Part shown: one piece after another, positions 26,620 through 33,884 of the stretch
How positions within the stretch are numbered: position 1 is the first letter of the stretch
Layout of the letters: each line of letters starts with the position of its first letter
Position numbers and translations under genes: made by a program
Assembly (NCBI GenBank): GCA_014192425.1
Contig: BJHK01000013.1
Coordinates: 1 to 64,000, forward strand
DNA from: Planctomycetia bacterium
GTDB lineage: Bacteria > Planctomycetota > Planctomycetia > Pirellulales > UBA1268
DNA length: 64,000 nt
Direction of reading: 5' to 3'
The notes under the pieces: model-generated
Seen by the model: the letters and a program-made list of their open reading frames with translations, nothing else
Databases searched by the model: none
What the model was told of the DNA's origin: nothing

Positions 26620-27522
26620 TCAGCCGGCGCGGACGCGGCAGTGGTCGAGGACGTTGTCCGCCGTGGCGACGTAGCCTGTGTAGAAGGGGCCGAACTCGGC
26701 GTAGCGGGCGCTCGCCTCGTCGAACCGCATCGTGTACACGATCTCCTTCAGCCAGTCGGGCCGGCGGGCCCAGAGCGTCACGCCCCACTCCCAGTCGTCG
26801 AGCCCCACCGACACGGTGATCAGCTGCGTGACACGGCCGCCGAACGACATGCCGGTGCGGCCATGCTCAGCCATCAGCCGGCTGCGCTCGGAGAACGGCA
26901 GCGTGAACCAGTTCTCCCCCACCTCGCGCTTCTTGTTCATCGGGTAGAAGCAGGCGTTGGGCCAGGGGGGGAGTTCGGGCTCGAGCCTGGCGAGCCGCAT
27001 CTGGTCTTCGCGGGCGGCGTAGCCCTGCACCTTGGCCCGGTAGGAGGGGCTGTCGAGAACCTCTCCCTCGGCCACGAGCCGCTGGCCATACTGCTCGACC
27101 GTGGGCACGTACTCGCTGACTTCGGTGAGGCTGACGAACGAATAGGTGGGCCGCAGCGCCTCCCCGAGCGGGCCGGCAAGGAGCCGCTGGTGGACCGCAT
27201 CGACGCGGAGCGGGGCCGGGTCCATCGCCATGATGCCGAAGTCGGCCTTGTGGCCGGGGACGAGCCAGGTCTGAAGCCGGGTCGGAGCCCCGGGGTCGGT
27301 CGGGTCGAGGGCGGCGGCGAACTGCCGGGCCCCCTCGGCCCGGGCGGCCGGCGAGAGGGTCGCGAGCCGGCCGCGGTCGAACGCATAAAAGGAGTGCGTG
27401 ACGTGCCAGCCGGTGCAGGGCTGCGTGGCCGTCTCCACGGCCTGGTGGGCGGCGGCGCGATCGGCATGGCCGGGGCGACCGGGGGCCAGGGGGGCGGACG
27501 GACGGGCGACGGTCTCGGACAC
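26620..27522 (-). CDS. hemQ: Coproheme decarboxylase HemQ/ChdC (chlorite-dismutase family)
   Basis: About 300 residues; GTG start at 27522 with GGAGAA six to seven bases upstream. The family core is clear: GWHVTHSFYAFDR, DFGIMAMDPAPLRVD, the YSFVSLTEVSEY tyrosine strand, NACFYPMNKKREVGENWFTL, the proximal haem histidine region RLMAEHGRTGMSFGGRV, then VGLDDWEWGVTLWA and KEIVYTMRFDEASARYAEFG. The enzyme oxidatively decarboxylates coproheme III to haem b in the coproporphyrin-dependent pathway. Other haem genes are not in the window. It is divergent from the type VII-like operon. Confidence 0.93.
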   Translation of the reverse strand: MSETVARPSAPLAPGRPGHADRAAAHQAVETATQPCTGWHVTHSFYAFDRGRLATLSPAARAEGARQFAAALDPTDPGAPTRLQTWLVPGHKADFGIMAMDPAPLRVDAVHQRLLAGPLGEALRPTYSFVSLTEVSEYVPTVEQYGQRLVAEGEVLDSPSYRAKVQGYAAREDQMRLARLEPELPPWPNACFYPMNKKREVGENWFTLPFSERSRLMAEHGRTGMSFGGRVTQLITVSVGLDDWEWGVTLWARRPDWLKEIVYTMRFDEASARYAEFGPFYTGYVATADNVLDHCRVRAG

Positions 27523-27642
27523 GGTCGGTTCTCCGGCAGGGGGCAGGGAGCGCGGCGGGCACGGGCCGCCAGCGGTCCGGAGTCTACGCCGATTCCTGCC
27601 CGGTTCCCAGCGGACCGCTGTCCGGCGGCGACCGGTTCGCGA

Positions 27643-27715: not shown

Positions 27716-27988
27716 ATGGGACAGGCGATCGTCGATCCGGAAGAGCTGCGCAAGTTCGCCAACGCCCTGCGCAGGTTCAGCGACGAGGTGGTGGCGCAGA
27801 TGCAGATGGTGCACCGGCAGCTCGGCGGCCTCAGCGCCACCTGGCGGGACCAGGAGCAGAAGAAGTTCTCCGAGGAGTTCGAGCAGCAGTTGATCATGTT
27901 CCGGCGGTTCGCCGAGTCGACCGGCGAGTACGTCCCGTACCTGATCCGCAAGGCCGAGCGGGCCGAGGAATACCAGCAGCAGCGCTGA
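27716..27988 (+). CDS. WXG100/ESAT-6-like small helical protein
   Basis: Protein of 90 residues with no signal peptide, predicted as two helices joined at a short turn containing LGGLSATWRDQEQKKF. W43-x-D replaces the classical WXG, and a phenylalanine (F51, F55) follows at helix-2 positions seen in WXG100 proteins. The N-terminus has an IVDPEELRKFANALRRF heptad pattern and the tail EEYQQQR is polar. Such proteins form dimers and are substrates or components of type VII secretion. AGGGGAG eight bases upstream sets the start. First gene of the operon; the next gene starts 22 bp after its stop. Confidence 0.72.
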   Translation: MGQAIVDPEELRKFANALRRFSDEVVAQMQMVHRQLGGLSATWRDQEQKKFSEEFEQQLIMFRRFAESTGEYVPYLIRKAERAEEYQQQR

Positions 27989-28010
27989 CACTCTGGCGAG
28001 GGAGGCGGCC

Positions 28011-28616
28011 ATGGCCGAACAGGTTGATGTCAGGTCGATCGACACCCTGGCCTTCGTCAAGGGGGCGCTGGCGGCGTTCGCGCACGAGGCCGGCCAGGCG
28101 ATCTCCGAGATGGAGCTCCAGGGGCAGCGCGGCATCGACTGGGTGACCGTGGAGCGGGCGGCCTACTGGAAGGCGGAGATCCGGCGCCGCAGTGACGTCG
28201 TCAACCAGGCGATGAAGGACCTGGAGCACTGCCGAACCTTCAAGAAGGTGGGCGACAACACGCCCTCCTGCGTCGAGGAGAAGAAGGTCCTGGCCAAGGC
28301 CCGGCGCAGGCTGGAGATCGCGGAGGAGAAGGCCCAGCTCGTCCGGCGTTGGACGCCGGTGGTGCTGCAGCAGTTTCGCGAGACCTGCGTCCGCCTGACC
28401 CGGTTTCGCGAGGTCATCGATCTCGACTGCCCGCGGGCGCTGGCCGAACTGGAGCGGATGCTGCGGGCGCTCGACGCCTACCAGAATGTGGCGGCGGTCC
28501 GCGACGAGCCGGCGCCGGAAGGAGGAGTCGGCACGGCGAGCGTCACGCGGCAGGATGTCGAGTCGTCCCCCGCGGCCCCGGCTCCCGCGGCTCCCGCCAG
28601 CGGAGGCGGGTCATGA
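28011..28616 (+). CDS. Coiled-coil protein of type VII-like operon, unknown function
   Basis: Protein of 201 residues. Residues 1-150 are helical and rich in charged heptads (EEKKVLAKARRRLEIAEEKA, RALAELERMLRALDA), and the last 40 are low-complexity Ala/Pro/Gly/Ser (SPAAPAPAAPASGGGS). No signal peptide or membrane helix. I recognise no domain. Its place between two WXG100-like genes, with GGAGG before its ATG and a four-base overlap into the next gene, argues for a part in the same machine, perhaps a chaperone or an LXG-like substrate-binding partner. Confidence 0.72.
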   Translation: MAEQVDVRSIDTLAFVKGALAAFAHEAGQAISEMELQGQRGIDWVTVERAAYWKAEIRRRSDVVNQAMKDLEHCRTFKKVGDNTPSCVEEKKVLAKARRRLEIAEEKAQLVRRWTPVVLQQFRETCVRLTRFREVIDLDCPRALAELERMLRALDAYQNVAAVRDEPAPEGGVGTASVTRQDVESSPAAPAPAAPASGGGS

Positions 28617-28852
28617 GGGTCGCCGACCTGTCCGGCGGCGCCGCGAAACTCGCCAATGCGCTCAAGCAGTTGCACATTAAGTGGGATGTGGCCAAGGACA
28701 CCTGGGACGACGCCCGCAGCCGGTCCTTCCACGAGACCCACATCGAGCCGCTGATGCCCGATGTCAAGGACATGCTCGACGCGCTCGGCCGCCTCGCTGA
28801 GGTGCTCGACAGGGCCTGTCGCGACGTGGCCGACGACCGCGACGGCGGCTGA
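28613..28852 (+). CDS. Second WXG100-like small helical protein
   Basis: Protein of 79 residues. ATG at 28613 overlaps the previous stop (ATGA) and is preceded by GGAGGCGGG, a strong ribosome-binding site. It forms two helices around KWDVAKDTWDDARSRSFHET: W31-D-D sits at the expected turn and a phenylalanine (F39) follows, as in WXG100 proteins. The C-terminus is acidic (VADDRDGG). Sequence similarity to the first small protein is only in pattern. Likely pairs with it or with the coiled-coil protein as a secreted or structural subunit. Confidence 0.68.
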   Translation: MRVADLSGGAAKLANALKQLHIKWDVAKDTWDDARSRSFHETHIEPLMPDVKDMLDALGRLAEVLDRACRDVADDRDGG

Positions 28853-28942
28853 TCCGCACCGTGCGGCGGCCCGTGCGGCCGGCCCGACTTCCCGCACTCC
28901 CAACCCGCCCCTCCCCTCGAAGTCACTCCGGCAGGACCGACC

Positions 28943-31900
28943 GTGAACAGCACCGCGACCGAACCGACCGACGACACCCCGCTCCCCGAATCCAGCGCCG
29001 CGGCGACGGCGTATGACCGTGACCTGCTCCGCGAGCAGATGGAGATCCTGCGGCGCGAGTCGGTCGTCCGGGCCGGGCTCGAGAAGGAGATTCGCACCGA
29101 GCACGAGACGGTCACGGTGAAGGTTCGCACCGAGTCGGAGCAGGCCATCACCGCCGCCCGCAGCCGCTACGGCGGCGAGATCGAGGCGGCGCGTCGGGAG
29201 CATGCGGCGCTCCTGCACAAGGCTGAGGCGTACGAGAAGGCGGAGCGGAAGAAAGCGGACGACCGGCTGAAGACGGACTCTGTCGCGGTCAAGCGTCGGT
29301 TCGAGCAGGCCATGCGCCAGGCGGACGAGGAAGATTCCTTCGAGGAGAGTTCCCTCACCGAGGTGCATCGCGACAAGCGCAAGGACCCGCAGCGGCTGTT
29401 CGTCAAGGCGGGGCGGGACGCGGCCGCCAGCCTGACGCAGATCGGGGATGCCGAGGGACGGATCAGGATGCAGCTGGCCGGCTGGCGGGTCCCGGGTGCT
29501 CCCACGCCGACCGATGAGGGGACGGAGCCGGCCGCGTCGGCCGAGGCCGCGTCGGCCGAGGCCGCGTCGGAGGAGACCGGCGATGAGGCTATTCCCCCCG
29601 CGGCTGCCGCGCCGCGTCCCGCAGACCCGTTGCCGCCGGATCCGCTGCCGCAGCTCGAATCGCTGCGGGCGGCGGTCGTCGCCCAGGAGCAGGAGCTGGC
29701 CGGTTTGCCGGCCGCCCGGCTGGCATTCGCCGGCGGCCTGCTCGGCGGCTCGATCGCCGTGCCGGTCATCCTCGCGATCGCGGCGGCCGCGGCCGCGTTC
29801 TTCCTGCGCGACGGAGAGACGGCCGACCGGGCACGGCTCGCGGCCAGCGCCGGCGGGATCGTCGCCGTGATCGGACTCGGGGTCGGGCTGTGGATCGTGG
29901 GCAGCCTGCGTCGCTCGGCCCGCGGCCGGCTCGCCGCGGCTCAGGTCCGGTTCTTCGAGGCCTGCCGACAGGCGCGGGACCTGGAGCCATCCTGCCAGGC
30001 GTACCTGGCGGCCCGTCGGGACGATCAACTGCGCCGGGTCGACGAGAAGTTCACCCGCGAAAAGGAGGCCCGCCGGCAGTCGGCGGCCGAGAAGCGGACC
30101 ACGCGGGCCGCCAAGCGGGACAAGGACGCAGCCGACATCACGGCCCGGCATGCGGCGGAGATCCAGGCGGTCGTCGACAAGGTCGGTGCCGCCCGGGCGG
30201 CGGCCGAGGCGAAGTATCCGGCCCGGATCGTGGCGCTGGAGACGAGCTGCCGCGAGGAGGTGGCTCGGCTGGAGCAGGCGCGGAACGATGCCCTGGCGCA
30301 GGCGGACCGCAACCGCGACGAGCGCTATGCCGCCCTCACAGCCCGCTGGAAGTCGGTCCGCGAGGGGACGGCGGCGATCTGCGCCACGGCCGCAGCGATC
30401 GACGCCGAGGCGTTCCGCCCCTGGCACGAATTGAGCCGTGAGGACGTGCCGCTGCCGACGGAGGCGCCGCCCGGACTGCGGTTCGGCACGCAGGAACTGA
30501 CCCTCGAGAAGGTGCCGGGAGGCGTGTCGGCCGATCCGGCGCTCAACGCCTTCGGGCCGGTGGCCTGGACACAGCCGGCGATCCTCCCCTATCCGGTCGA
30601 CGCGTCGCTGGTGGTGGAGACGACGGCCGAAGACAAGGAGACGGCGTCGGCCTTCATGCAGGGGCTGATGCTGCGCATCGCGACCGGCATCCCCGCGGGG
30701 CAGAGCCGGTTCACGATCATCGACCCGCTCGGCCTCGGCAAGCAGTTCGCCGGGTTCATGCACCTCGCCGACTACGACGAGCTGCTTGTCACCAGCCGGA
30801 TCTGGACCGAGCCACAGCTCGTCGAGCAGCGGCTCGCCGACATCACCGAGCAGATGGAGGTGGTGATCCAGAAGTACCTGCGCAACGAATATCCCTCCAT
30901 CGGCGCCTACAACGCGGTGGCGGAGGTTCCCGAACCCTACCGGTTCGTGGTCGTGGCCAACTTTCCGGCCAACTTCAACGAGACGAGCGCCCGGCGGCTG
31001 GCGAGCATCGCCGCATCGGGGCCGCGCTGCGGCGTGTACACGATCGTCTCGGTGGATGTGAACGCACAGATGCCCGCCGGCTTCGACCTCGCCGACCTGA
31101 CGAAGTACGCCACCGTGCTCGGCCTCGAGAAGGGCGTGTTCGAGTGGCGCGATCCGGAGTTCTCGCGCTGGCCGCTGACAGTGGAGCAGGCCCCCGCCGA
31201 CGACGTGTTCACGGCGATCATCCAGCGGGTCGGCCGGGCGGCGAAGGCGGCCAAGCGGGTCGAGGTGCCGTTCGACCGGGTCGCGCCCGCCGAGGCCGAC
31301 TGGTGGAAGGGGAGCACGGCCAGCGAGGTGCTGGCGCCGCTGGGACCGGCGGGCGCCAAGAAGCTCCAGTTTCTGAAGCTCGGCCGGGGCACGAGCCAGC
31401 ACTGCCTGATCGCCGGCAAGACCGGTTCAGGCAAGTCGACTCTGATGCACGCCATGATCACCAGCCTGGCGTTGCAGTACAGCCCGAGCGAGATCCAGTT
31501 CTACCTCATCGACTTCAAGAAGGGCGTCGAGTTCAAGCTCTACGACCACTACCGGCTGCCGCACGCCCGGGTGATCGCCATCGAGAGCGAGCGCGAGTTC
31601 GGCCTCTCGGTGCTGGAGCAGCTCGACCGCGAGCTGAAGCGTCGCGGCGACCTGTTCCGCGACATGTCGGTGCAGGACGTGGCGGGGTTTCGCAAGACCG
31701 GGCATCCCGACCCGATGCCGCGCATCCTCCTCCTCATCGACGAGTTCCAGGAGATCTTCGTCGAGGACGACAAGGTCGCCCAGGACGCCGCCCTGATTCT
31801 CGACCGGCTCGTCCGCCAGGGGCGGGCCTTCGGGATGCATGTCCTGCTCGGCTCGCAGACGCTGGGCGGCTCCTACAGCCTGCCCCGGGCGACGATGGGG

Positions 31901-33202
31901 CAGATGGCCGTGCGGATCGCGCTGCAGTGCAACGAGGCCGACTCCAGCCTGATCCTCTCCGAGGACAACACGGCGGCCCGACTGCTGACGCGGCCCGGCG
32001 AGGCGATCTACAACGACGCCAACGGCATGGTCGAGGGGAACAACCCGTTCCAGGTCGTGTTCCTCAACGACGAGCGCCGCGAGCGGTATCTCGGCGCGCT
32101 GCGGGCGCTCGCCGATCGGCGGTCCGACATTCCGCAGCTGCCGCGGATCGTCTTCGACGGCAACCAGGCGGCCGAACCGGCCGGGAACCCCCTGCTCAGC
32201 GAACTCCTCGATTCGGGCACGGTCCGCGGCCGGGAGCCGGGGCCGCCGCTGGCCTGGCTCGGCGACGCGATCGCGATCAAGGATCCGACCGCGGCGGTGT
32301 TCCGCCGCCAGGGGGGCGCCAACCTGCTCGTGGTCGGGCAGCGCGAGGACCTGGGCACGAGCCTTCTTGCCCTGGCGATCGTCAGCCTGGCGGCGGGGCA
32401 CGACCCGCATCCGGGCGGCGGGCTGGGCCGAGCGGCCCGGTTCGTCGTCTTCGAGCCGGCGATCGCCGAGGAGAAGCCCGACACCATGCTGGCCCGGCTC
32501 GCCGACCACCTGCCGCACGAGATCGAGGCCGCCGGCCGGCTGGGAGTGGCGGCGGCGATCGAGGGAGTGGCCAACGAGGTCAAGCGCCGGCTCGACGAGC
32601 AGGTGCTCGACGGGGAGTCGGTGTTCGTCGTGATCCGCGATCTCGGCCGGTTCCGCGAGCTGCGGAAGAACGACGGTGATTTCGGCTATTCGTTCGGCGA
32701 CAAGAAGGCCGGCCCGGCTGACCACCTGCTGACAATCCTCAAGGACGGGCCGGCGGTCGGGGTGCATGCGATCATCTGGTGCGACTCGCTGACGAACCTG
32801 CAGCGGACGTTCGACCGCAACGCGGTCAAGGAATTCGAGCTCCGCGTCCTGTTCCAGATGAGCGGCAACGACTCCAGCCAGCTCGTCGACAGCCCGGTGG
32901 CGGCCCGGCTCGGCCCACAGCGGGCCCTGTTCATCCACGAGGAGACCGGGACGTTGGAGAAGTTCCGTCCCTACTCGTTCCCGACGCCCGAATGGCTTGC
33001 CGGAGTGGCCGCGCGGATGCGGGCCCGCCCGCAGGGGACGCCGCGACCGCGGCCGGCGGCAGCCGGCGCCGCGCGTAACGCGACCGCGTCAGGACACGAG
33101 GACAAGCCGGCGGAGCTGGGGAGTTTCTCCGGCTTCGGCGCCGGAGAGTTCAACTTCACGAAGCTCCTCGACGACGCCCCCGACGACACTGCCGGCGGCT
33201 GA
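28943..33202 (+). CDS. FtsK/SpoIIIE-type membrane ATPase, EssC/EccC-like
   Basis: Protein of 1419 residues starting at GTG with AGGA upstream. Residues 1-250 are highly charged coiled coil, ending in a Pro/Ala-rich linker. Two membrane helices follow at about 260-285 and 299-322, then another coiled-coil stretch to about 500. The first ATPase domain has Walker A GKTGSGKST at 825-833 and Walker B ILLLIDEFQEIF with D933-E934. The next P-loop, around 1131 (VVGQREDLGTSLLALAI), is degenerate. This layout (membrane helices plus FtsK domains of decreasing fidelity) is that of EssC/EccC, the motor of type VII secretion, but the N-terminal FHA domains of firmicute EssC are absent. It ends GFGAGEFNFTKLLDDAPDD, and the stop is followed by the 187-bp repeats. 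Confidence 0.88.
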   Translation: MNSTATEPTDDTPLPESSAAATAYDRDLLREQMEILRRESVVRAGLEKEIRTEHETVTVKVRTESEQAITAARSRYGGEIEAARREHAALLHKAEAYEKAERKKADDRLKTDSVAVKRRFEQAMRQADEEDSFEESSLTEVHRDKRKDPQRLFVKAGRDAAASLTQIGDAEGRIRMQLAGWRVPGAPTPTDEGTEPAASAEAASAEAASEETGDEAIPPAAAAPRPADPLPPDPLPQLESLRAAVVAQEQELAGLPAARLAFAGGLLGGSIAVPVILAIAAAAAAFFLRDGETADRARLAASAGGIVAVIGLGVGLWIVGSLRRSARGRLAAAQVRFFEACRQARDLEPSCQAYLAARRDDQLRRVDEKFTREKEARRQSAAEKRTTRAAKRDKDAADITARHAAEIQAVVDKVGAARAAAEAKYPARIVALETSCREEVARLEQARNDALAQADRNRDERYAALTARWKSVREGTAAICATAAAIDAEAFRPWHELSREDVPLPTEAPPGLRFGTQELTLEKVPGGVSADPALNAFGPVAWTQPAILPYPVDASLVVETTAEDKETASAFMQGLMLRIATGIPAGQSRFTIIDPLGLGKQFAGFMHLADYDELLVTSRIWTEPQLVEQRLADITEQMEVVIQKYLRNEYPSIGAYNAVAEVPEPYRFVVVANFPANFNETSARRLASIAASGPRCGVYTIVSVDVNAQMPAGFDLADLTKYATVLGLEKGVFEWRDPEFSRWPLTVEQAPADDVFTAIIQRVGRAAKAAKRVEVPFDRVAPAEADWWKGSTASEVLAPLGPAGAKKLQFLKLGRGTSQHCLIAGKTGSGKSTLMHAMITSLALQYSPSEIQFYLIDFKKGVEFKLYDHYRLPHARVIAIESEREFGLSVLEQLDRELKRRGDLFRDMSVQDVAGFRKTGHPDPMPRILLLIDEFQEIFVEDDKVAQDAALILDRLVRQGRAFGMHVLLGSQTLGGSYSLPRATMGQMAVRIALQCNEADSSLILSEDNTAARLLTRPGEAIYNDANGMVEGNNPFQVVFLNDERRERYLGALRALADRRSDIPQLPRIVFDGNQAAEPAGNPLLSELLDSGTVRGREPGPPLAWLGDAIAIKDPTAAVFRRQGGANLLVVGQREDLGTSLLALAIVSLAAGHDPHPGGGLGRAARFVVFEPAIAEEKPDTMLARLADHLPHEIEAAGRLGVAAAIEGVANEVKRRLDEQVLDGESVFVVIRDLGRFRELRKNDGDFGYSFGDKKAGPADHLLTILKDGPAVGVHAIIWCDSLTNLQRTFDRNAVKEFELRVLFQMSGNDSSQLVDSPVAARLGPQRALFIHEETGTLEKFRPYSFPTPEWLAGVAARMRARPQGTPRPRPAAAGAARNATASGHEDKPAELGSFSGFGAGEFNFTKLLDDAPDDTAGG

Positions 33203-33342
33203 GGTGCCGGCGGCGTGTGTCGCGCCGTCGCCGCCGACATAGCGTCTGACCTTCGCGCCGTCGCAGCCGACACGGCGGCTGCGACGGCGTACGGTCGCCG
33301 GGCGGAGCCCGGCTTGGCGTGCTGCACGCGTCGTGTGACGGA

Positions 33343-33417
33343 GCAGGAAGAACGGCAGCAGGACGCGGAGCGTGAGGCTATCCTGCCTCAGCGACGCGAC
33401 TGCTGCCGTCTTCCTGC
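33343..33417 (+). ncRNA. Structured hairpin, copy 1 of 3
   Basis: The left arm GCAGGAAGAACGGCAGCAG pairs with CTGCTGCCGTCTTCCTGC at the right end with one bulged A. Inside, CGCG pairs with CGCG, a tandem A-G/G-A mismatch follows, and TGAGGC pairs with GCCTCA around the loop TATCCT. About 30 base pairs in 75 nt. The feature could be a transcribed RNA element or a DNA palindrome; strand given by wobble evidence in copy 3. Confidence 0.55.
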
Positions 33418-33558
33418 GGCTTGGGCGATTGGCCCGGCTGATTCGCGGCGTGCCTATCGCGCTGCATTCGCGCCGTCGCAGCCGACACGGCGGCTGCTCC
33501 GGCTTACGGTCGCCGGGCGGAGCCTGGCTTTGGCATGCTGCACGCGTCATGTGACGGA

Positions 33559-33633
33559 GCAGGAAGAACGGCAGCAGGACGCGGAGCGTGAGGCTATCCT
33601 GCCTCAGCGACGCGACTGCTGCCGTCTTCCTGC
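33559..33633 (+). ncRNA. Structured hairpin, copy 2 of 3
   Basis: Identical in sequence to copy 1 across all 75 bases, although the flanking halves of the 187-bp units have diverged more. This suggests the hairpin is the conserved part of the unit. Confidence 0.55.
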
Positions 33634-33760
33634 GGCTTGGGCGATTGGCCCGGCTGGCTTGCGTGTGTGTCGCGCCGTCGCAGCCGACACGGCGGCTGCT
33701 CCGGCTTACGGTCGCCGGGCGGAGCCCGGCTTTGGCATGCTCCACGCGTCATGTGACGGA

Positions 33761-33835
33761 GCAGGAAGAACGGCAGTAGGACGCGGAGCGTGAGGCTATC
33801 CTGCCTCAGCGACGCGACTGCTGTCGTCTTCCTGC
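33761..33835 (+). ncRNA. Structured hairpin, copy 3 of 3
   Basis: Two substitutions relative to the other copies, one in each arm (left CAGCAG to CAGTAG, right CTGCTGCC to CTGCTGTC). Each turns a G-C pair into a G-T, which as plus-strand RNA is a G-U wobble, so the fold is kept. Confidence 0.55.
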
Positions 33836-33884
33836 GGCTTGGGCGATGGGCCCGGCTGCCGGGCTGAGCCGCGCGAAGACGGCA

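What the first reader, a model, noticed from the sequence alone, without database searches (positions are those of the whole stretch)
27716..33202. Type VII-like secretion operon: two WXG100-like proteins, a coiled-coil protein and an EssC-like ATPase
Four genes lie in a tight plus-strand run with overlaps or short gaps. Two encode helical proteins of 79-90 residues with a Trp at the turn and no signal peptide; the last encodes a 1419-residue membrane FtsK/SpoIIIE ATPase with one perfect Walker A/B set and a degenerate second P-loop. This is the diagnostic pairing of type VII secretion, known mainly from actinobacteria and firmicutes. Here the usual partners (EccB/D/E, mycosin, EsaA/EssA/EssB) are absent and the ATPase has a long coiled-coil N-terminus in place of FHA domains. 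A planctomycete minimal system of this design may be undescribed.
Basis: partly seen in the sequence, partly recalled or inferred. Interest (0 to 1): 0.85.

Follow-up and report, generated by a model that had tools for sequence, protein, structure and literature searches.

The report
Minimal type VII-like secretion operon, planctomycetes
A four-gene operon in a planctomycete encodes a slimmed-down relative of the type VII protein export machine best known from tuberculosis bacteria; it is a stable core feature of this bacterial family, so it probably exports something important across the membrane of a Gram-negative cell, although export itself has not been shown.

Summary
Four plus-strand genes encode a WXG100 protein (g1), a long helical-hairpin protein (g2), a second WXG100-like protein (g3) and a 1419-aa FtsK/SpoIIIE ATPase (g4). 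Of 79 related planctomycete loci, 61 hold all four genes, always in this order. Across 392 planctomycete genomes g1, g2 and g4 occur together in 57 and apart in very few. In the window's own family g1 is core: 30 of 32 good genomes, all 12 genera, one copy each. g4 has three ATPase-like domains with only the middle one intact; multi-domain structural matches are to EccC/EssC alone. No other type VII component tested was found.

The kind is not new: a 2012 footnote (PMC3482391) notes planctomycete solo WXG proteins with such an ATPase, and H. pylori HP0062/HP0066 is called a minimal type VII set (PMC4978471). What looks new is the four-gene form, g2 and g3, the W-x-D signature in both small proteins, and vertical core inheritance, against the 2012 'mobile' reading. 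A plasmid relative carries a WHH nuclease and SUKH immunity gene between its small genes, favouring protein export. Export is unproven: a quarter of close relatives lack the ATPase's transmembrane helices.

The parts
27716..27988 (+). g1: 90-aa WXG100-family helical hairpin, W-R-D at the turn
   Evidence: Pfam WXG100 29.9 bits > 27.3; profile of 29 relatives hits H. pylori HP0062 (E 2.9e-10), B. anthracis EsxB and S. aureus EsxA structures
27842..27850 (+). W43-R44-D45 of g1, invariant in 29 relatives
   Evidence: alignment A1, motif count
28011..28616 (+). g2: 201-aa long antiparallel helical hairpin (residues 8-77 and 88-164) with a Pro/Ala-rich disordered tail; candidate substrate or trafficking module
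   Evidence: AlphaFold model pLDDT 84; no Pfam/NCBIfam family; generic coiled-coil PDB matches only
28230..28301 (+). Cys motif C74-x12-C87-x2-E-x3-L-x2-A at the tip of the g2 hairpin
   Evidence: motif scan; shared with coiled-coil proteins beside distant ATPases; pattern chosen after seeing them
28613..28852 (+). g3: 79-aa second WXG100-like protein (W-x-D), overlaps the g2 stop by ATGA
   Evidence: Pfam WXG100 21.9 bits, below cut-off; W31 and D33 invariant in 29 relatives
28943..33202 (+). g4: 1419-aa FtsK/SpoIIIE-type ATPase, coiled-coil N-terminus, two TM helices, three ATPase-like domains
29750..29899 (+). two transmembrane helices of g4 (residues 270-288, 301-319)
   Evidence: hydropathy; absent from 17 of 68 close relatives
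30563..31147 (+). ATPase-like domain 1 of g4, P-loop lost in all 68 relatives checked
31328..32017 (+). ATPase domain 2 of g4, the only intact one
31415..31438 (+). Walker A GKTGSGKS (825-832); Lys831 conserved 68/68
31724..31744 (+). Walker B ILLLIDE (928-934); Asp933 and Glu934 conserved 68/68
32249..32977 (+). ATPase-like domain 3 of g4, degenerate
26620..27582 (-). conserved neighbour, not a member: chlorite dismutase-family gene, divergent from g1
   Evidence: Pfam Chlor_dismutase 175 bits; next to g1 in 39 of 55 loci with room

Best explanation
The operon encodes a minimal type VII-like (WXG100/FtsK-family) protein export system fixed as a core chromosomal function in this planctomycete family. 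Proposed working: g1 and g3 form W-x-D helical-hairpin dimers; one or both dock on the g4 ATPase together with the g2 hairpin; g4 assembles into a ring at the inner membrane and its single active middle domain drives the small proteins and g2, as substrate or as carrier, across the membrane. Shown: gene identities, intact and lost ATPase sites, conserved order, co-occurrence, vertical inheritance, kinship to EccC/EssC and to WXG100 proteins. Inferred: dimer formation, ring assembly, and that protein rather than DNA is moved and leaves the cytoplasm.
For: WXG100 membership and solved relatives HP0062, EsxB, EsxA. Multi-domain structural matches only to EccC/EssC (4lya 496 aa, 4n1a 503 aa, 4nh0 744 aa); best sequence matches EccC/YukB. 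Order g1-g2-g3-g4 in 61 loci. Co-occurrence in 57 of 392 genomes with 1-4 discordant per direction, kept even where the genes are scattered, e.g. single-contig genome G105 with g4 at 0.23, g1 0.71, g3 1.94, g2 2.66 Mb. Distant relatives on plasmids put g1 homologues (73.9, 48.7, 35.6, 23.5 bits) beside the ATPase; the Helicobacter plasmid holds a WHH nuclease (44.6 > 25.1 bits) and a SUKH-1 immunity protein (29.1 > 25.4) between the small genes. A separate true FtsK with 4TM, alpha and gamma domains exists in the same genome.
Against: No secretion experiment. TM helices absent in 17 of 68 close relatives. YukC, YukD and EsaA not found; EccB not found but its control was silent. No YxxxD/E export motif in g1, g2 or g3. 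The active domain taken alone scores highest against FtsK motors (Z 31). No toxin or dedicated effector at the planctomycete loci. No outer-membrane component known for a diderm.
Confidence: 0.58

Rival explanations
1. An internal machine: g4 with g1-g3 acts in the cytoplasm or at the division site on DNA or envelope proteins (chromosome or stress role), having lost secretion. The WXG proteins serve as adaptors only.
For: Core, single-copy, vertically inherited; no effectors nearby; TM helices lost in a quarter of close relatives; active domain individually nearest FtsK; distant WXG-FtsK modules sit in TerY-P/Ter stress clusters (PMC4978471).
Against: Multi-domain layout is shared with EccC/EssC only; a plasmid relative carries a nuclease-immunity pair in the operon; the cell has its own FtsK.
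Confidence: 0.27
2. A polymorphic-toxin delivery system: g2 is a toxin trafficking module that carries variable C-terminal toxins.
For: Cys-tip motif shared by g2 and the coiled-coil parts of Caballeronia 436-aa, Rhodococcus 314-aa and Deinococcus 326-aa proteins, 0 hits outside g2 in 1.02 million background residues (pattern post hoc); g2 of G368, G384 and G325 carries an Imm33-like domain (30.6-32.6 > 27 bits); W-x-D domain joined to an HExxH region beside the L091 ATPase.
Against: In the window and nearly all planctomycetes the g2 tail is short and disordered; one g2 per genome; profile-profile comparison of g2 with the Rhodococcus protein gives only 19.5% probability, with the Caballeronia protein 2.4%.
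Confidence: 0.1
3. A mobile element-borne module recently acquired, as proposed for this kind in 2012.
For: Zhang et al. 2012 footnote; plasmid-borne relatives.
Against: Family labels need 8 changes on the g4 tree, the least possible; shuffled mean 29.8; g1 core in the own family; same neighbour gene in 39 of 55 loci; the 80 viral loci examined held no g1, g2 or g3 homologue.
Confidence: 0.05

Closest known systems
Minimal WXG-FtsK modules of Gram-negatives (Zhang et al. 2012, PMC3482391, table footnote 6)
   Same: Solo WXG proteins; [quoted passage not shown] planctomycetes named
   Different: Footnote gives no operon, no g2 or g3 and calls them mobile; here a four-gene core operon with vertical inheritance
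H. pylori HP0062/HP0066 (HP0062 PDB 3fx7, 2gts; PMC3397514, PMC4978471)
   Same: Helical-hairpin homodimer with WRD in the bend, gene cluster with an FtsK/SpoIIIE protein; best PDB match of g1
   Different: Called a minimal WxG plus FtsK set; no g2-like hairpin or second WXG-like protein is mentioned in the passages read
EccC (T7SSa) / EssC-YukB (T7SSb)
   Same: Tandem FtsK-type domains, TM pair before the ATPase part, WXG100 partner
   Different: NCBIfam EccC/EssC models score far below cut-off; only one of three domains active, the middle one; no FHA; coiled-coil N-terminus; other components not found
FtsK DNA translocase
   Same: Fold of the active domain (Z 31)
   Different: No gamma or 4TM domain, three tandem domains, WXG100 partners; the genome has a separate FtsK

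Membership tests
WXG100 superfamily (g1) | About 100-aa helical hairpin matching the curated WXG100 profile | tested here: met
   29.9 bits > 27.3; 29/29 relatives match at E<=0.1; PDB EsxA/EsxB/HP0062
WXG100 superfamily (g1, g3) | W-x-G at the turn | tested here: not met
   W-x-D in 29/29 of both; W-x-G in 0 of 29 g1
WXG100 superfamily (g3) | Match to the curated profile | tested here: inconclusive
   21.9 bits, below 27.3; 9/29 relatives match at E<=0.1
Canonical type VII secretion (T7SSa/T7SSb) | EccC/EssC ATPase by curated models | tested here: not met
   109.8 vs 509 and 94.8 vs 778 bits
Canonical type VII secretion (T7SSb) | EssB/YukC, EsaB/YukD, EsaA present | tested here: not met
   none in 5 genomes; B. 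subtilis control rings
Canonical type VII secretion (T7SSa) | EccB present | tested here: inconclusive
   no hit, but the control was silent
Canonical type VII secretion (T7SSa) | YxxxD/E export motif on a substrate | tested here: not met
   0 of 29, 29 and 27 sequences
Type VII-like secretion, any | Export of the WXG100 protein by the ATPase | not testable with these tools
   needs experiment
Minimal WXG-FtsK module (Zhang 2012) | Three HerA/FtsK domains, only the middle active | tested here: met
   Walker K/D/E 68/68 in domain 2; P-loop 0/68 in domains 1 and 3; fold
Minimal WXG-FtsK module (Zhang 2012) | Mobile | tested here: not met
FtsK DNA translocase | FtsK alpha, gamma and 4TM domains | tested here: not met
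   not in g4; found in the separate FtsK

The most novel reading that the evidence does not exclude
A core, vertically inherited type VII-like exporter in a diderm phylum that uses only four proteins and moves a stand-alone coiled-coil carrier (g2), the same module that in plasmid relatives delivers nuclease toxins; it would be a physiological type VII system of Gram-negative bacteria working without any known accessory membrane or outer-membrane component.
Probability: 0.3. Interest if true: 0.85.

Novelty: new variant of a known kind. Interest (0 to 1): 0.6.

Why it matters
Type VII secretion is treated as a Gram-positive trait, and a recent review states that the Gram-negative WXG100/FtsK pairs are unconfirmed as secretion systems (PMC10765036). 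A four-gene core version, with a single active ATPase domain and a solved homologue of one small protein (HP0062), is a small testable system for asking what the irreducible export engine is and how substrates would cross a diderm envelope. It also separates a stable planctomycete branch from plasmid-borne relatives that carry toxins.

Tried and rejected
DNA translocase FtsK: rejected, separate FtsK present. Phage origin: 80 viral loci gave no g1, g2 or g3 homologue and one weak g4 hit. Membrane partner gene replacing the lost TM helices: clustering of flanking ORFs showed no conserved TM protein beside the TM-less loci. g2 homology to toxin N-domains by profile-profile comparison: too weak; the Cys motif is specific but was chosen after seeing the sequences, and no further plasmid systems were found for an independent test. 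g1 versus g3 profile comparison: weak (7.4% probability), so duplication is not shown. g2 structure search: generic coiled coils only. PADLOC hits to g4 are P-loop-domain matches only. A dimer model of g1 with g3 could not be run. Search for g1-like paralogues in the own genome: no significant ones. The first family-wide genome search failed and was done with g1 at the end.

Full report
WHAT IS THERE. Four plus-strand genes: g1 27716-27988 (90 aa), g2 28011-28616 (201 aa), g3 28613-28852 (79 aa, overlapping the g2 stop by ATGA) and g4 28943-33202 (1419 aa). g1 passes the curated Pfam WXG100 cut-off, g3 matches the same model below it, g2 matches no family, g4 is FtsK_SpoIIIE. NCBIfam's best models for g4 are EccCa and EssC, far below cut-off.

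CONSERVATION. A scan of 84,980 species genomes with g4 returned 79 loci, all planctomycete by record title except one labelled only 'bacterium'. 62 hold g1, 63 g2 and 67 g3; 61 hold all four, always in the same order and strand. Most of the rest are short contigs that start inside the operon; L079 (read) and L073 have some upstream sequence without detected small genes. g1 is 89-91 codons long in all 62.

CENSUS. In 392 planctomycete genomes drawn evenly over the phylum, g1 is in about 60, g2 in 59 and full-length or partial g4 in 62; 57 have all three, with 1-4 discordant genomes per direction (Fisher p about 1e-63 to 1e-66, not corrected for phylogeny). g3 is in 24 of 25 carriers tested. In several genomes the genes are scattered yet all present, for example G105 (one 6.76-Mb contig). 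In the window's own family, g1 is in 50 of 60 genomes, 30 of 32 good ones, all 12 genera, one copy each.

INHERITANCE. On a tree of g4, nine families need 8 label changes, the least possible for the set, against a shuffled mean of 29.8 (a quick tree with some open forks). The divergent chlorite dismutase-family gene sits beside g1 in 39 of 55 loci with room. Both speak for mainly vertical descent in planctomycetes.

ANATOMY. g1 and g3 carry W-x-D in all 29 aligned relatives each; W-x-G is absent from g1. The g1 profile's best solved relative is H. pylori HP0062, also WRD, then EsxB and EsxA. g2 is modelled as one long helical hairpin (residues 8-77, 88-164; pLDDT 84) with a disordered tail. 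g4 has coiled coil, two TM helices (270-288, 301-319), more coiled coil, then three ATPase-like domains (pLDDT 82). The middle one keeps Walker A Lys and Walker B Asp and Glu in 68/68; the outer two have no P-loop in any of 68. Structural comparison: the single active domain is nearest FtsK (Z 31.1), but matches spanning two or three domains are only to EccC/EssC. The TM pair is missing in 17 of 68 close relatives, and in the compact plasmid ATPases, two of which have a separate coiled-coil TM gene next door.

DISTANT RELATIVES. Five plasmid systems and one gut contig carry ATPases of this type. g1 homologues lie beside four of them. In the Helicobacter plasmid the order is g1-like, WHH nuclease, SUKH-1 immunity protein, 77-aa gene, ATPase. 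In Caballeronia it is WXG100, 436-aa coiled-coil protein, 113-aa gene, 76-aa gene, ATPase, next to VWA, PP2C and kinase genes. The Helicobacter operon thus has a toxin-immunity pair where planctomycetes have g2. A Cys motif at the g2 hairpin tip recurs in three of the coiled-coil proteins and in nothing else among 1.02 million background residues, but the pattern was defined after seeing them and profile comparison is weak, so common descent of g2 and these proteins is a lead only. In three planctomycete genomes g2 ends in an Imm33-like domain above cut-off.

WHAT IS MISSING. YukC, YukD and EsaA were not found in five carriers while B. subtilis rang; EccB was not found but its control was silent. 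No YxxxD/E motif. The genome has its own complete FtsK.

HOW IT MOST LIKELY WORKS. By analogy with EccC/EssC (established for that family, inferred here): WXG-like dimers bind the ATPase and signal it; one active domain powers transport; g2, long and rigid with a free tail, is either the cargo or the carrier. Membrane anchoring is by the TM pair here, and by something else in the relatives that lack it. The weak points are that anchoring variation, the absence of any known envelope partner, and the lack of any export data.

PRIOR ART. Zhang et al. [quoted passage not shown] PMC3397514 notes HP0062's WRD and its FtsK neighbour; PMC4978471 calls WxG plus FtsK a minimal type VII set, with a TerY-P association. 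PMC10765036 says such Gram-negative pairs are unconfirmed functionally. T7SSc-T7SSj (PMC11217815) are Gram-positive. Library searches found no paper on a planctomycete four-gene system; most subscription papers are not covered.

VERDICT. A real, conserved, minimal type VII-like operon; a new variant of a known but scarcely described kind. Protein export is the likeliest function (0.58); an internal role is the main rival (0.27).

Noticed in passing
window 33215-33858: Downstream of g4: three copies of a 189-nt repeat (73-97% alike, spacing 216 and 202) and four of a 34-nt unit, before pdxJ.
   Followed up: partly
window 26620-27582 (-): Chlorite dismutase-family gene divergent from g1, next to the operon in 39 of 55 loci with room; functional link unknown.
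   Followed up: partly
L088:5761-10163 (Helicobacter plasmid): WXG-like gene, WHH nuclease, SUKH-1 immunity gene and ATPase in one operon on an epsilonproteobacterial plasmid; [quoted passage not shown]
   Followed up: partly
L087:4915-17737 (Caballeronia plasmid); L086:12555-15664 (Rhodococcus plasmid): WXG-FtsK module next to VWA, PP2C and kinase genes (TerY-P-like), and next to TerD-family genes, respectively.
   Followed up: no
L091:2037-7371: Gut contig filed as phage, with recombinase: ATPase relative followed by a W-x-D helical domain joined to a HELGH metalloprotease-like region.
   Followed up: partly
L225, L226, L234: g2 with a C-terminal Imm33-like domain in place of the disordered tail.
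   Followed up: partly
L017, L020, L023, L024, L026, L034-L040, L042, L051, L055, L068, L069: Close g4 relatives without the TM pair, replaced by a short hydrophilic linker; no substitute membrane gene seen.
   Followed up: partly
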